Positions 17,589 through 20,800 of a stretch of 21,639 bases of DNA are shown here, piece by piece. This DNA is from Candidatus Pacearchaeota archaeon (GTDB lineage: Archaea; Nanoarchaeota; Nanoarchaeia; Pacearchaeales; GW2011-AR1), in NCBI GenBank assembly GCA_002690445.1, contig NZER01000499.1, forward strand, positions 1-21,639, written 5' to 3'. The notes beneath the pieces are model-generated. The model did not search any database, was not told where the DNA came from, and worked only from the letters and a program-made list of their open reading frames with translations. Position numbers and translations under genes: made by a program. Position 1 is the first letter of the stretch. Every line of letters starts with the position of its first letter.

Positions 17589-19010
17589 CTAGAAGTCTCC
17601 CAGGTGCAGATCTCCCGCACCATACCCCACGCCGTGCGATTGGGTAGAGCCTGAATTGTCAAGGCTCGGGTTGAGGGCTGCGATGTCGGGCTGCTCGACT
17701 ACCCCATGGCGGGCGACGACGTAGTACCGCAGCGCATCCATGCTGTGATCGTGGATCCCGTCCTTGTGCGGCTCGTTGGTGTGCTGCCTCTTCGATGGGT
17801 ACTTGTAGCCCATGAGCCCGCCGTGTACGCCTACCGCGCCCTCGGGGTAGCGGCTGGTGCGGCTCTGCTCGGTCAAGGCCCTGGCGACGAACAGGCGACG
17901 CCTGCCCGAGTGGTCCTGAAGCTTGCACCGGGTAGCCTCGACACCGTTGGGGATGTGCCGCTCCACTGGCCCGCGAGGGTGCTGCATGTAGCCCGAGAGC
18001 ACACCGGCTGAGCGAAAGATGTCCTCATAGACCTTGAAGCTGGAGAGCCCCGTCTGAGCGTTCCTGCTGGCCCCTGCCGGGTCGCAGTAGCATTCAAGCA
18101 TCGTCAAGCCCAGGCGCTGCAAGTGCTCGGCACAGTCGCGAGCGTGGCGGCTCTCCAGGACGTTGGCTGCCACCACCTCCTCGACCACCACCTCGCCGCA
18201 GTCATGGTCTTGGACGATCCCGAAATAAGGCTTCCTGCCGCCGAAGTCCAGCATCCCATAGGTCGGCTTGCTGGGGTCTGGCTCCACGTCAACGATGCTC
18301 TCGTCGGTGTAGTTCCAATAGACGACGCCCTCAAGCACGACGAACTCGCCGTGGATGTAGGCGCGTGCCAGCCTGTCGCTCAGGTTGAGGTGCTCGATGT
18401 AGCCGGGCGGCAGGTGCGGGTTGTCGGTGGTGCTCCCTCTGATGACCGTCCGCTTGGGGTGCGGCTTGCCGAACTCGTCCCACATCCAGCCCATGGCCGG
18501 AACACCCGCCAGGGCCCGGCGTAGCTGCTTGCTCTGTGGGTCCCTGATGCGGGCATTGAAGATGCGCCACGCCTCGGGCCTGACCAGCCTGGGCTCATCC
18601 AGGCAGCCCCAGGCGTAGCTTGCGCCCTCCAAGCTGGCCACATTCTCGGCGCTTCCAAACATCCACTCCGACGAATTGAACAGAGTTAAAACGCGGTCAC
18701 TCGCCGACCAGTCCTTGACCAGCGGGCCGAGACAGTCGCGGGCATTGGCTGTGCCGGTAGGCCAGCGCTTGGCCTCGGGGAATATGTCCACGATCGCCCG
18801 GTACAGCGTGCGCCGTTGCAGCGGGAAGGTGGGCGACACCAGCACGCCGGGCCTGCCTGGGTTCTCCACCGTCAGGCGCAGGGCCTCAGCTATCAACCAC
18901 CACGTCTTGCCCGAGCCCCAGCCGCCAGCAAAGAGCACCGTGTCCTGTGGCGCGGTGTGCGCCCGTAGTTGCGCGCTGTGGGGCCTGTAGTCAACGCTGA
19001 GGTGTCTCAC
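17589..19010 (-). CDS. terL: Terminase large subunit, 473 aa
   Basis: The DNA packaging motor ATPase/nuclease has a Walker A GGWGSGKT (residues 29-36), a Walker B ending in C-L-D-E (Asp138, Glu139) and an N-rich FNSSEWMFGSAENVASLEGA segment before it. The RNase H-like nuclease half includes YGMLDFGG (Asp255), CYCDPAGASRN (Asp310) and DHSMDALRYYV (Asp425), the three acidic positions expected for metal binding. At 473 aa it is of usual length and complete. It packages DNA through the portal encoded next. The ATG at 19008-19010 overlaps the TGA of the small subunit gene as ATGA. Packaging type (cos or pac) cannot be decided from sequence by eye. Confidence 0.95.
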   Translation of the reverse strand: MRHLSVDYRPHSAQLRAHTAPQDTVLFAGGWGSGKTWWLIAEALRLTVENPGRPGVLVSPTFPLQRRTLYRAIVDIFPEAKRWPTGTANARDCLGPLVKDWSASDRVLTLFNSSEWMFGSAENVASLEGASYAWGCLDEPRLVRPEAWRIFNARIRDPQSKQLRRALAGVPAMGWMWDEFGKPHPKRTVIRGSTTDNPHLPPGYIEHLNLSDRLARAYIHGEFVVLEGVVYWNYTDESIVDVEPDPSKPTYGMLDFGGRKPYFGIVQDHDCGEVVVEEVVAANVLESRHARDCAEHLQRLGLTMLECYCDPAGASRNAQTGLSSFKVYEDIFRSAGVLSGYMQHPRGPVERHIPNGVEATRCKLQDHSGRRRLFVARALTEQSRTSRYPEGAVGVHGGLMGYKYPSKRQHTNEPHKDGIHDHSMDALRYYVVARHGVVEQPDIAALNPSLDNSGSTQSHGVGYGAGDLHLGDF

Positions 19011-19390
19011 TCGGTCAGCGGTCCAGGCACATGCAGATTTACTGTAACGGGCTGTACGTCCACCTCAGCGGCTCTCTCGACTCCGGTTATCTTGCTCTCT
19101 AGCGTCATCATCGCAGCAAGCGGGCCGAGCTTGCCTGCGTCCAGTGCTGCGCGTTGGTGGCCTCTGATCCGGTCGAGGAACTCCGAGCGCATCTCGTCAA
19201 GCTCCTGCTCTGACAACTCAAGCCGGGTGCGCTCGATCACTCGCTTGCGGTAGGCGTAGACCGTATCCCGGCTCACGCCCATCTCTGCTGCGAGGTCTAG
19301 CGCGATCTGAAGCGACCAGCCACGCTCACCGATCCGCTGCTGCACGATAGCCATGCGCCGTTCGATCTCTGCCTGGGTGGTCTTCGGCAT
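19007..19390 (-). CDS. terS: Terminase small subunit-like DNA-binding protein, 127 aa
   Basis: The 127-aa product has an N-terminal helix-turn-helix (WSLQIALDLAAEMGVSRDTV, about residues 25-44, followed by Y-A-Y-R-K-R). A long helical oligomerisation-like region (LSEQELDEMRSEFLDRIRGH, about 59-78) and a short beta-like C-terminus (VQPVTVNLHVPGP) come next. This order, and the ATGA overlap with terL, fit a small terminase that recognises the packaging site. The start ATG at 19388-19390 has only AGGA three to four bases upstream, weaker than its neighbours. It is preceded by a 111-base gap with a hairpin, so its expression may be controlled separately from the early genes. Confidence 0.82.
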   Translation of the reverse strand: MPKTTQAEIERRMAIVQQRIGERGWSLQIALDLAAEMGVSRDTVYAYRKRVIERTRLELSEQELDEMRSEFLDRIRGHQRAALDAGKLGPLAAMMTLESKITGVERAAEVDVQPVTVNLHVPGPLTE

Positions 19391-19457
19391 ACGTCCTATA
19401 GCCTAGCAAGTGTGCCCCCAGTCTATGCAGCCGCCTGCCGATGTCCAGAACCAGCAA

Positions 19458-19501: not shown

Positions 19502-19729
19502 CTAGCTGTTGTCCATCTCGGCGTAGTAGGCATCCTCGGCGGCGGTGCAGTCGCGGACCTCGGTGCGGGTCGTGCCGTAGGCGCGGCGGGCGACGGGAGC
19601 CGGGCGGGCGGCGAGGGCGCGGCGGTCGGCGGCGACCTTGGCATCCTCGGCGGCGGCCTCCGCGTCCAGGCCCAGGAGGGCGTCGAGGTCCGCGTCGGTG
19701 AGGTCGGTGATGTAGATGAGGTTGGTCAT
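19502..19729 (-). CDS. Small acidic hypothetical protein, 75 aa
   Basis: The 75-aa product has an acidic, Ala/Leu/Asp-rich first half (MTNLIYITDLTDADLDALLG, then DAEAAAEDAKVAADRRALAA) that should form amphipathic helices. The second half is more basic with one Cys and a Tyr-Tyr near the end. No family is recognised. The start ATG at 19727-19729 has GGGAG eight bases upstream. A longer in-frame start at 19798 would fall inside the promoter-like element and is rejected. It is the first gene after promoter-like element B and the last before the terS gap, so it may be transcribed alone. A regulatory role is possible but not shown. Confidence 0.72.
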   Translation of the reverse strand: MTNLIYITDLTDADLDALLGLDAEAAAEDAKVAADRRALAARPAPVARRAYGTTRTEVRDCTAAEDAYYAEMDNS

Positions 19730-19770
19730 TGTCTCGGCTCCCGGTGGCTTAATTGCCCTCAACTGTTTAT

Positions 19771-19799
19771 AGAATACCGTATCCACATCAAAGCACAAG
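19771..19799 (-). promoter_or_regulatory. Promoter-like element B upstream of the 75-aa gene
   Basis: On the minus strand a -35-like CTTGTG (19794-19799), a 17-base spacer (19777-19793) and a -10-like TATTCT (19771-19776) are present. The spacer is identical at 15 of 17 positions to that of element A (20743-20759), including CTTTG and TGTGGATACG. A start point about seven bases downstream (near 19764) would give a 35-base leader with a proper ribosome site. Sequence conservation between the two sites, more than hexamer quality, supports function. Confidence 0.6.
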
Positions 19800-19810
19800 G
19801 CGTATCTACG
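19779..19810 (-). repeat. Pair of DnaA-box-like 9-mers, region B
   Basis: On the plus strand GTATCCACA (19779-19787) and GTATCTACG (19802-19810) are 23 bases apart, start to start. The first differs from the E. coli DnaA box TTATCCACA only at position 1; the second is weaker. Both lie in an AT-rich intergenic stretch and are the counterparts of the pair in region A. They could be DnaA sites, repressor operators or parts of a phage origin. Confidence 0.45.
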
Positions 19811-19845
19811 AAATAAACAAAGAAAGTTTCAGCCAGCAGAGCAGT

Positions 19846-20094
19846 CTAGCGTTTGGCGTGCGTCCTATATCCGCTCTCCAGGTCATCCAGCCGATCCGCT
19901 ATCGCTCGATCTGTCGCTGCGAAGTTCGCCCTGTACCTCTCCCGCTTGGCTATGAGGCAATCCCGGCAGGTGATCTCCTCGATCCGGGTGGACAGGGTTG
20001 CCTGCCTGCCTGCCAGGCCTCGGCCTGGAGTTGCCCCGCATGCCGCCTTGTCTGTGGTAAGCCCGAAGCCCGGAGCTATTGCGTGGATCTTCAT
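19846..20094 (-). CDS. Small Cys/His (zinc-binding-type) protein, 82 aa
   Basis: The product starts MKIHAIAPGFGLTTDKAACG and contains ITCRDC (Cys43, Cys46). With His4 and Cys19 these give an H..C..C-x-x-C set that could bind one zinc ion, a pattern common in tiny phage early proteins with no settled function. A basic/helical C-terminus follows (AKRERYRANFAATDRAIADR). The ATG at 20092-20094 overlaps the TGA of the 60-aa zinc-ribbon gene as ATGA and has AGGAAGG upstream. The two are co-translated and may work together. Coding of the zinc site is seen; metal binding is inferred. Confidence 0.75.
   Translation of the reverse strand: MKIHAIAPGFGLTTDKAACGATPGRGLAGRQATLSTRIEEITCRDCLIAKRERYRANFAATDRAIADRLDDLESGYRTHAKR
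20001..20028. repeat. CCTG tandem repeat followed by a short palindrome, inside a coding region
   Basis: CCTG repeats (3.5 copies, 20001-20014) run into CCAGGCC (20013-20019) / GGCCTGG (20022-20028), a 7-bp inverted repeat with only a two-base centre. It lies within the 82-aa gene, coding for the Gly/Arg/Ala-rich segment after Cys19. It could be chance in GC-rich DNA or a binding or slippage site. Confidence 0.4.
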
Positions 20095-20273
20095 CGTCTC
20101 GCCTTCCTGTAGGTGCCTCGCTTCAGTTCAGCCCCGCAGCCTCCGCAGATGATTGCCGACCAGCCAGCCCAGGCGACCGTGCGGGCCTTTCCGCAGTCCG
20201 GGCAGGTAACGGTCACGATGTAGGCCCCCGAGCCGCCGGGGTGGCGTCTCTTGTGTGTGAGGGTGGCTTTCAT
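20091..20273 (-). CDS. Zinc-ribbon protein, 60 aa
   Basis: The 60-aa product contains TVTCPDCGKARTV (Cys24, Cys27) and IICGGCGAELKRG (Cys43, Cys46), a CPDC-x15-CGGC zinc ribbon, flanked by basic residues at both ends (KATLTHKRRH and KRGTYRKARR). It is probably a small nucleic-acid- or protein-binding early protein. The ATG at 20271-20273 has AGGAGGA upstream, deciding for this start over an in-frame ATG at 20429 that would overlap the 76-aa gene. It overlaps the next zinc-type gene by ATGA. The fold call is firm; the role is unknown. Confidence 0.82.
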   Translation of the reverse strand: MKATLTHKRRHPGGSGAYIVTVTCPDCGKARTVAWAGWSAIICGGCGAELKRGTYRKARR

Positions 20274-20313
20274 AGTGTCCTCCTGCCGGATAGGCTCGGC
20301 GGGCCGTGGGTGG

Positions 20314-20544
20314 TTAGCTTCGGATCTCTGCCAGCCGCGCCACAGACTCAAGCAGGGAGGCTGTGGCCTGGGTGACGTCTTTGTGGTTGTAATTGGGGTT
20401 GATCGCTGCGATCTCGTCATAGAGATCAAGGCTTGCGTCCGCGCGCAGAGTGACCTCCCTTTTTTCTACATACTCCAGCATCTTGCTAGCCAGCCGAATG
20501 GCCCGCAGGCTGAAGGCTGCATACTCCATAGCCAACCCAGTCAT
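20314..20544 (-). CDS. Small helical hypothetical protein, 76 aa
   Basis: The 76-aa product is predicted all-helical by pattern (MEYAAFSLRAIRLASKMLEY, DLYDEIAAINPNYNHKDVTQ, ATASLLESVARLAEIR), amphipathic, with no Cys and no transmembrane segment. No family is recognised. It starts at ATG 20542-20544 with GGAGGA upstream, 20 bases after the stop of the 54-aa gene and about 40 bases before the zinc-ribbon gene, so it belongs to the same early transcript from element A. A small dimeric regulator is possible but unproven. Confidence 0.72.
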   Translation of the reverse strand: MTGLAMEYAAFSLRAIRLASKMLEYVEKREVTLRADASLDLYDEIAAINPNYNHKDVTQATASLLESVARLAEIRS

Positions 20545-20564
20545 CGTCTTGTCCTCCGTGCGGC

Positions 20565-20729
20565 TCAGGCCGCCTGTGCCCGTTGCTGGGCTCGGGTTGT
20601 CCGCGTCAGGGTCGCCTTGACCCCGGCTCGGTGAAGCTCCCTGACTCGACGCTGGGCGGCCTTGGCGGTGCCTCGGACCTGCTCTGGGTCTCTGCCGGGT
20701 GCTTCGATTGTGTAAATTCGAACTCTCAT
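20565..20729 (-). CDS. Basic 54-aa protein, probably translated from a leaderless message
   Basis: The product starts MRVRIYTIEAPGRDPEQVRG and continues with a basic helix-forming part (TAKAAQRRVRELHRAGVKAT, then L-T-R-T-T-R) to an Ala/Gln-rich end. An N-terminal beta strand followed by a basic helix suggests a small nucleic-acid-binding or ferredoxin-like fold (inference). No Shine-Dalgarno precedes the ATG at 20727-20729 and no other in-frame start codon lies nearby upstream. The -10 of element A ends at 20737, putting the expected transcription start at 20730-20729, so the transcript would be leaderless. GC-rich codon use matches its neighbours, supporting a real gene. Confidence 0.62.
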   Translation of the reverse strand: MRVRIYTIEAPGRDPEQVRGTAKAAQRRVRELHRAGVKATLTRTTRAQQRAQAA

Positions 20730-20736
20730 GTGACTG

Positions 20737-20765
20737 ATGTTATCGTATCCACAACAAAGAGCAAG
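20737..20765 (-). promoter_or_regulatory. Promoter-like element A upstream of the small early genes
   Basis: On the minus strand a -35-like CTTGCT (20760-20765), a 17-base spacer (20743-20759) and a -10-like TAACAT (20737-20742) are present. TTGCTC with a 16-base spacer is an alternative register. The spacer is almost identical to that of element B. It lies in the 71-base gap between the 188-aa gene and the 54-aa gene and would drive the four small genes below it. Confidence 0.6.
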
Positions 20766-20779
20766 GAAAAGTATCCACC
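20745..20779 (-). repeat. Pair of DnaA-box-like 9-mers, region A, beside the replication genes
   Basis: On the plus strand GTATCCACA (20745-20753) and GTATCCACC (20771-20779) are 26 bases apart, start to start. Each matches seven or eight of nine positions of TTATCCACA. An AT-rich run (CTTTTTAAAT) follows directly. With the replication genes just upstream, this could be part of a phage origin, a DnaA-controlled promoter or an operator. Confidence 0.5.
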
Positions 20780-20800
20780 TTTTTAAATCAGTGCCGCAGT

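What the first reader, a model, noticed from the sequence alone, without database searches (positions are those of the whole stretch)
19771..20779. Duplicated promoter-like element with DnaA-box-like repeats in both early intergenic gaps
The two AT-richer gaps (20730-20800 and 19730-19845), about 970 bases apart, carry the same element: -35-like CTTGnn, a 17-base spacer identical at 15 of 17 positions, -10-like TAnnnT. Conservation is strongest in the spacer (CTTTGwTGTGGATACGr), not the hexamers, so the spacer itself is probably a binding site. TGTGGATAC is one base off the reverse DnaA box TGTGGATAA, and each element has a second copy 23 or 26 bases upstream. Hypotheses: host DnaA-controlled early promoters, a phage repressor operator lying between -35 and -10, or origin iterons next to the replication genes.
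Basis: partly seen in the sequence, partly recalled or inferred. Interest (0 to 1): 0.72.

Follow-up and report, generated by a model that had tools for sequence, protein, structure and literature searches.

The report
Phage promoters sharing a private switch
Two matching control switches in this virus of bacteria belong to a set of promoters, scattered over related phage genomes, that each phage marks with its own short protein-binding site, probably so that one small repressor can turn several groups of small accessory genes off together.

Summary
In detail: both gaps carry a promoter-like element with 15 of 17 matching bases and a second box 26 or 23 bases upstream. DnaA and origin readings fail. 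Relatives keep the layout (-35, 16-18 bases, -10, box in the spacer, usually a box upstream) but change the box. I collected 28 copies in 13 contigs, in five box classes. Copies in one genome agree at the box (0.75, 7 pairs) better than copies at one place in different genomes (0.42, 66 pairs); a neighbouring promoter-like site does not follow the classes. In 4 of 4 contigs where a ribbon-helix-helix gene was found, it is the third gene behind such an element, with predicted DNA-contact residues that differ between classes. Best reading: an Arc/Aca-like autorepressor controls several operons of small accessory genes through a phage-specific operator between -35 and -10. Operator status is well supported; regulator identity, repression and any anti-defence role are inferred. 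The window is a fragment and its own regulator gene is not in it. Similar logic is known from plasmid p576 and archaeal viruses; this looks like a phage variant.

The parts
20771..20778 (-). element 1, upstream box GTGGATAC
20759..20764 (-). element 1, -35-like TTGCTC
   Evidence: below the consensus cut-off
20745..20752 (-). element 1, operator box GTGGATAC in the 16-base spacer (20743-20758)
   Evidence: class A box, 13 of 14 sites in class A contigs lie in elements
20737..20742 (-). element 1, -10-like TAACAT; the start codon follows after 7 bases
20565..20729 (-). first gene behind element 1, 54 aa, MRVRIYTIEAPGR..., also directly behind an element in G004, G007, G009 and G011 (start only in G011)
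20314..20544 (-). small gene, 76 aa, no family match
20091..20273 (-). small gene, 60 aa, zinc-ribbon-like (all Pfam matches below cut-off)
19846..20094 (-). small gene, 82 aa, no family match
19802..19809 (-). element 2, upstream box GTAGATAC
19793..19798 (-). element 2, -35-like TTGTGC
   Evidence: below the consensus cut-off
19779..19786 (-). element 2, operator box GTGGATAC in the 16-base spacer (19777-19792)
19771..19776 (-). element 2, -10-like TATTCT
19752..19765 (-). leader motif CAGTTGAGGGCAAT, shared with relatives
19502..19729 (-). gene behind element 2, 75 aa, MTNLIYITDL..., no family match
19420..19447 (-). separate promoter-like site TGGACA-16-TAGACT, 57 bases before the TerS-like gene; used as the control because its spacer does not follow the box classes

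Best explanation
Each element is a sigma-70-type promoter with an operator box in its spacer (starting 5-6 bases after the -35 in classes A to C, as I aligned them) and usually a second box just upstream of the -35. One phage-encoded protein binds the copies of its own genome. The best candidate is a small ribbon-helix-helix (RHH; Arc/NikA-like) protein, whose gene lies third behind one of the elements. It would shut off its own operon and the other operons of small accessory genes once it has built up, giving a short burst of expression after DNA entry. Shown by sequence: the copies, their layout, the genome-specific boxes, the place of the RHH gene in four relatives. Inferred: that the RHH protein binds the boxes, that binding represses, that expression is early, and that the window's phage has such a gene.
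For: 28 copies in 13 contigs with one layout; TAnnnT as -10 in 25 of 28. Spacer identity 0.62 within and 0.36 between genomes for 27 elements, 0 of 2000 label shuffles; core family (19 elements) 0.66 and 0.44, 0 of 2000; the 30 bases upstream show little (core 424 of 2000). Box identity 0.75 between two slots of one genome (7 pairs), 0.42 at the same slot in different genomes (66 pairs). Control site before the TerS-like gene: between classes 0.68-0.71 against 0.37-0.41 for the elements. Class A box: 14 sites in 72,144 bases of class A contigs, 13 in elements; 1 site in 142,423 bases of the other classes. Looking at class B boxes outside known elements led to a further element in G004. The box is inverted in the element before the RHH gene in G011 and in G004. 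RHH gene third behind an element in G004, G011, G005 and L079; RHH family: Pfam NikA-like above cut-off in G004 and G005, PHROG Arc-like repressor, G011 homologous to G004, L079 found by profile, E 1e-5. Class A and B RHH homologues keep RHRSIRI (10 of 10 rows) or RTRNLRV (8 of 8 rows) in the strand.
Against: No binding or expression data. The window lacks the RHH gene. The window's two promoters are poor matches to the sigma-70 consensus. With a fixed register the spacers of different class A genomes agree at only 0.39 (8 pairs), because the box sits one base nearer the -35 in L004 and G006. The short class C box is common (47 sites, 9 in elements) and the class B box has sites elsewhere (10 in class B, 5 in the elements known then, 7 with the added one; 9 in class A). 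L080 has an element but no RHH was found in its 8.9 kb. Element boundaries and classes were set by eye before the tests; label shuffles ignore relatedness. The upstream box is less regular, and in class B differs from the spacer box. G011 has no Pfam RHH match above cut-off; the fold model is weak with no significant fold match. Only four RHH/box pairs, so covariation is not tested.
Confidence: 0.6

Rival explanations
1. The boxes are operators of another phage protein, such as the Cro-like HTH_3 protein encoded upstream of the 188-aa gene, as in a lambdoid switch.
For: G004 and G011 encode such a protein (HTH_3 above cut-off), 53% identical, so its specificity could differ; one site with 1 mismatch (ATGGGGAC) lies in front of it in G004.
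Against: In front of the Cro-like gene of G011 there is no box with up to 1 mismatch, and both gaps hold other inverted repeats (read by eye), which look like its own operators. It is not behind an element.
Confidence: 0.12
2. The boxes are bound by a host regulator, and the classes reflect different hosts.
For: Hosts are unknown; TerL sequences of classes A and B are close, but the hosts may still differ.
Against: The same replacement at 2 to 4 places per genome with unchanged surroundings, and an RHH gene behind an element in four contigs, fit a phage-borne regulator better.
Confidence: 0.12
3. The boxes are parts of promoters used by an activator or an alternative sigma factor, so the system switches genes on, not off.
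For: A bound protein in the spacer can activate (MerR type, recalled); the window's -35 sequences are weak.
Against: Spacers of 16-18 bases and near-consensus TTGACC/TAnTAT in classes D and E need no activator.
Confidence: 0.12
4. Host DnaA boxes or origin iterons.
For: TGTGGATAC is one base from a DnaA box.
Against: Classes B to E are not DnaA-like; 0 sites of TTAT[CA]CACA in 13 contigs; the copies stand before genes on both strands.
Confidence: 0.02
5. The likeness within a genome is only recent duplication of intergenic DNA, without a binding protein.
For: Elements share flanks (CGCTAGACTGC before, CAGTTGAGG after), so they can be copied or exchanged by recombination.
Against: Within the core family the 30 bases upstream are hardly more alike within genomes than between (0.41 and 0.37), while the spacer is (0.66 and 0.44); two elements carry the box inverted.
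Confidence: 0.08

Closest known systems
Reg of conjugative plasmid p576 and its EGeRS2 promoters (PMC8708921; abstract and passages seen)
   Same: A predicted RHH repressor, encoded behind one of several strong promoters that each carry its operator; dispersed operons of variable, mostly unknown genes.
   Different: Plasmid of Bacillus, not a phage; operators (dual heptamers) lie upstream of the -35 and sometimes after the start, not in the spacer; no set of differing operator classes as here.
Anti-CRISPR-associated (Aca) repressors (PMC9410906; abstract and one section seen)
   Same: Small repressor gene behind small accessory genes; one inverted repeat always within the core promoter, at times a second; autorepression.
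   Different: Aca proteins are HTH, not RHH; one operon as described there; no anti-CRISPR gene was identified here.
Early anti-defence regulons of archaeal viruses (PMC11065993; abstract and passages seen)
   Same: Several accessory genes of one virus share a conserved promoter region that differs between viruses; proposed shut-off by a co-expressed regulator.
   Different: Archaeal promoters; Aca8 is a winged-helix protein.
P22 Arc repressor at Pant (operator between -10 and -35 recalled; RHH nature seen in passages of PMC4803016)
   Same: Phage RHH protein; operator in the promoter spacer; autoregulation.
   Different: One locus in P22; here several operons per genome and class-specific boxes.
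Stoperators of Cluster A mycobacteriophages (PMC6550527, passages seen)
   Same: Dispersed sites whose sequence differs between related phages along with the repressor.
   Different: Stoperators stop elongation and the repressor confers immunity; here the sites seen lie in promoters, and lysogeny was not tested.

Membership tests
RHH-autorepressed multi-operon regulon (p576 Reg type) | Several promoters of one genome share an operator | tested here: met
   Two or more elements in 10 of 13 contigs, one in 3 (G006, L017, L080), most contigs being fragments
RHH-autorepressed multi-operon regulon (p576 Reg type) | An RHH gene lies behind one of these promoters | tested here: met
   4 of 4 contigs with an RHH found by the profile (G004, G011, G005, L079), third gene behind an element; not testable in the window, which is a fragment
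RHH-autorepressed multi-operon regulon (p576 Reg type) | The RHH protein binds and represses these promoters | not testable with these tools
   needs binding and reporter assays
RHH (Arc/MetJ/CopG) DNA-binding proteins | Match to an RHH family | tested here: met
   G004 and G005: Pfam NikA-like above cut-off, PHROG Arc-like repressor 2.5e-6 and 4.7e-6. G011: no Pfam match above cut-off, PHROG 0.0095, but blastp to G004 9e-9. L079: profile 1e-5, PHROG only a weak other match
RHH (Arc/MetJ/CopG) DNA-binding proteins | Strand-helix-helix fold | tested here: inconclusive
   model of G011 protein: helices 37-48 and 53-65 after an extended stretch, pLDDT 64, pTM 0.37; fold matches not significant
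Aca repressors | HTH fold and an anti-CRISPR gene in the operon | tested here: not met
   RHH, not HTH; the window's small genes match no described function; those of the relatives were not scanned
DnaA boxes | TTATNCACA consensus kept in relatives | tested here: not met
   0 sites of TTAT[CA]CACA in 13 contigs; looser form 1, outside elements
Stoperators | Many sites in and between genes away from promoters | tested here: not met
   13 of 14 class A sites lie in promoter elements; this holds for class A, while classes B and C boxes are too short or common to tell

The most novel reading that the evidence does not exclude
A phage-borne, RHH-controlled burst regulon: each phage lineage marks several promoters with a private operator, so that one small repressor, insulated from those of sister phages, times a set of exchangeable accessory operons that act against host defences.
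Probability: 0.35. Interest if true: 0.75.

Novelty: new variant of a known kind. Interest (0 to 1): 0.55.

Why it matters
If true, the box is a tag that marks accessory, possibly anti-defence, genes in uncultured phages whose proteins match nothing, and it gives a natural set of RHH repressors with different operators in which to study how specificity changes. The parallel with a plasmid and with archaeal viruses would make timed shut-off of genes needed on entry a general solution of mobile elements.

Tried and rejected
DnaA control and origin iterons: rejected. The Cro-like protein as regulator: not favoured. More distant TerL relatives L008-L013 (six contigs): scanned for AT-rich stretches and promoter patterns, no element of this kind recognised; L009 and L011 hold only 1.1-1.4 kb before TerL. 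G013, G014, G016 (found with the gene behind the Cro-like gene): AT-rich stretches read, one promoter-like site each by the pattern used, not repeated. L081 and L082: no element recognised and no RHH. Leader pattern: the two new contigs L064 and L065 have 44-45% GC and no element around the match; taken as chance. The 82-aa gene found no relatives among viral contigs and the Cro-like protein of G011 only itself. Host: one weak TerL match, 26%, in an Acidimicrobiia MAG; 238 phage records match TerL, all below 60%, the 15 listed near 25%; no DNA match among phages, none for the G004 RHH. Host left open. The leader hairpin was not tested for covariation, because the alignment was not in structural register. 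Contact residues of the RHH proteins were assigned by my own alignment to Arc residues 9, 11 and 13 (recalled).

Full report
What is there. The window is an IMG/VR virus record of 21,639 bases without a completeness estimate. Its main genes run on the - strand: tape measure, head protease, Mu-like portal, TerL (17589-19010), a small HTH-like protein in the TerS position (19007-19390; weak matches only), then small genes up to a 188-aa gene of no known family, and at the right edge the end of a gene that in G004 follows a Cro-like gene. The two gaps of the finding hold the elements as described. In the window the match beats shuffles (0 of 400), though 3 of 590 random pairs of stretches reach it, so relatives were needed.

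Relatives. Viral contigs were searched with TerL (12 loci), the 188-aa gene (6), the gene behind the Cro-like gene (16) and a structural protein (14); the lists overlap. Three close TerL relatives that cover the region (L004, L005, L007; 91-93%) each have two elements there; L003 and L006 end before it. All 6 contigs found with the 188-aa gene (L015-L020) have at least one. The layout stays: -35 TTGnnn or TAGACn, 16-18 bases, a -10 that fits TAnnnT in 25 of 28, then either a start codon almost at once or a leader that often begins CAGTTGAGG. The box changes: class A GTRGATAC (window, L004, G006, G011), class B GTGGGGAC (L005, G004), class C GTGCGCAC-like (G007, L017, G009, G010), class D GRTTAMCAG (G005; 2 of 3 elements fit it), class E GGGG-rich with ATTTCnnGAAAT upstream in 3 of 5 (L079, L080). 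G names are whole contigs behind L loci: G004 = L007, G005 = L014, G006 = L015, G007 = L016, G009 = L018, G010 = L019, G011 = L020. Elements per contig: window 2, L004 2, G011 2, L005 2, G004 4, G007 2, G009 2, G010 2, G005 3, L079 4, and one each in G006, L017 and L080.

Tests. For 27 elements (the fourth of G004 was found later) spacer identity is 0.62 within and 0.36 between genomes (0 of 2000 label shuffles); in the core family (classes A to C, 19 elements) 0.66 and 0.44 (0 of 2000), and at the 8-base box 0.66 and 0.42 (6 of 2000). The -35 hexamer gives 161 of 2000 and the 30 bases upstream 424 of 2000 in the core family, but 2 and 54 of 2000 over all classes. Box identity is 0.75 between two slots of one genome (7 pairs) and 0.42 between genomes at one slot (66 pairs). 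I chose the register by eye and the shuffles ignore relatedness. As a control I took the promoter-like site 57 bases before the TerS-like gene (one site found, 0.5 expected). It occurs in 9 of 10 contigs searched (not G005). Between classes its spacer agrees at 0.68-0.71, the elements at 0.37-0.41; class A contig L004 is identical there to class B contigs L005 and G004. Against a clean picture, elements of different class A genomes agree at only 0.39 in this fixed register, where the box is shifted by one base in L004 and G006. The class A box has 14 sites in 72,144 bases of class A contigs, 13 in elements, and 1 in 142,423 bases of the others; the inside count is partly by construction, the rarity outside is not. 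Class B boxes outside the known elements pointed to a further element in G004. The class C box is short and common and adds little.

Regulator. In G004, G011 and G005 another element precedes two small genes and then an RHH gene. A profile of these three found a fourth in L079, a contig that then proved to have four elements upstream of it on the same strand; there too it is the third gene behind the nearest element. It is the last gene of the run listed by the script in G004, G011 and L079; in G005 one more doubtful GTG frame is listed. In the G011 element and in one of the two in G004 the spacer box is inverted. Family evidence is good for G004 and G005, indirect for G011, profile-based for L079. 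Database homologues fall in two groups that keep RTRNLRV (class B type, 8 of 8 rows) or RHRSIRI (class A type, 10 of 10 rows). By my alignment to Arc (recalled) the contact positions read T,N,R in B, H,S,R in A, I,A,R in D and P,S,K in E. Four pairs are too few for a covariation test. The structure model is weak; its matches are not significant, though those at the top are NikA, ParG, MatP and AvtR, which I recall as RHH proteins.

Mechanism. The simplest reading is occlusion: RHH dimers on the box between -35 and -10, helped by the upstream box, block RNA polymerase. Since the RHH gene lies behind such a promoter, all these operons would be on at entry and fall as the protein builds up. Activation is not excluded. 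What the small genes do is unknown; those of the window match no described function, and an anti-defence role is an analogy with Aca operons, p576 and archaeal viruses, not a result.

Literature. Ten searches were made. Seen beyond listings: PMC8708921, PMC11065993 and PMC9410906 (abstract plus passages or one section), PMC6550527 and PMC4803016 (passages). The listings showed no RHH-controlled multi-operon regulon in a phage; PMC8708921 (2021) says that the comparable phage repressors are HTH proteins. This covers open-access text and these terms only.

Limits. The window's own regulator is inferred from G011. Hosts are unknown. The fraction of relatives with both elements and RHH rests on few contigs: both in 4; element without RHH in L080 and in fragments that do not reach that arm; neither in L081 and L082.

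Noticed in passing
window 20727-20742; same in G004, G007, G009, G011: Five elements are followed by ATGAGAGTT only 6-7 bases after the -10, so the mRNA would be leaderless if these promoters work as drawn.
   Followed up: no
window 19730-19765 and leaders in most other elements: The leader CAGTTGAGG... can form a small hairpin just before the ribosome site; in L079 the stem sequence changes on both sides (GGGGC/GCCCC and GGCGC/GCGCC). Single folds score z -1.1 to -2.9 against shuffles in 7 of 7 leaders tried. No covariation test.
   Followed up: partly
window element 1 and G009 element 2: The same first gene (MRVxxYTIEAPGR) follows the first element in the window, G004, G007 and G011 but the second in G009, as if promoter-gene cassettes move between slots.
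   Followed up: no
window 19700-19729 and G004 behind the element at 25676: The gene starts MTNLIYITDLT and MTNLIDITDLT are nearly the same in two unrelated-looking small genes in opposite arms of two genomes.
   Followed up: no
window about 20275-20315; also L004, G004: A repeated intergenic sequence (GGCCCGCCGGAGCCTATCCGGCAGGAGGACA...) stands before several small genes in these genomes.
   Followed up: no
G004 31836-31955 and G011 27230-27345 (script coordinates): The gap before the Cro-like gene holds other inverted repeats, different in the two genomes (e.g. CAGCAACGC...GCGTTGCTG in G011), probably its own operators.
   Followed up: partly
class C elements (G007, G009, G010): A further inverted box (ACGCACCT or similar) lies about 35-40 bases before the -35.
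   Followed up: no
G005: TerL is split between the two ends of the contig, so this record looks circularly permuted; its two elements near TerL are on the other strand from TerL.
   Followed up: no
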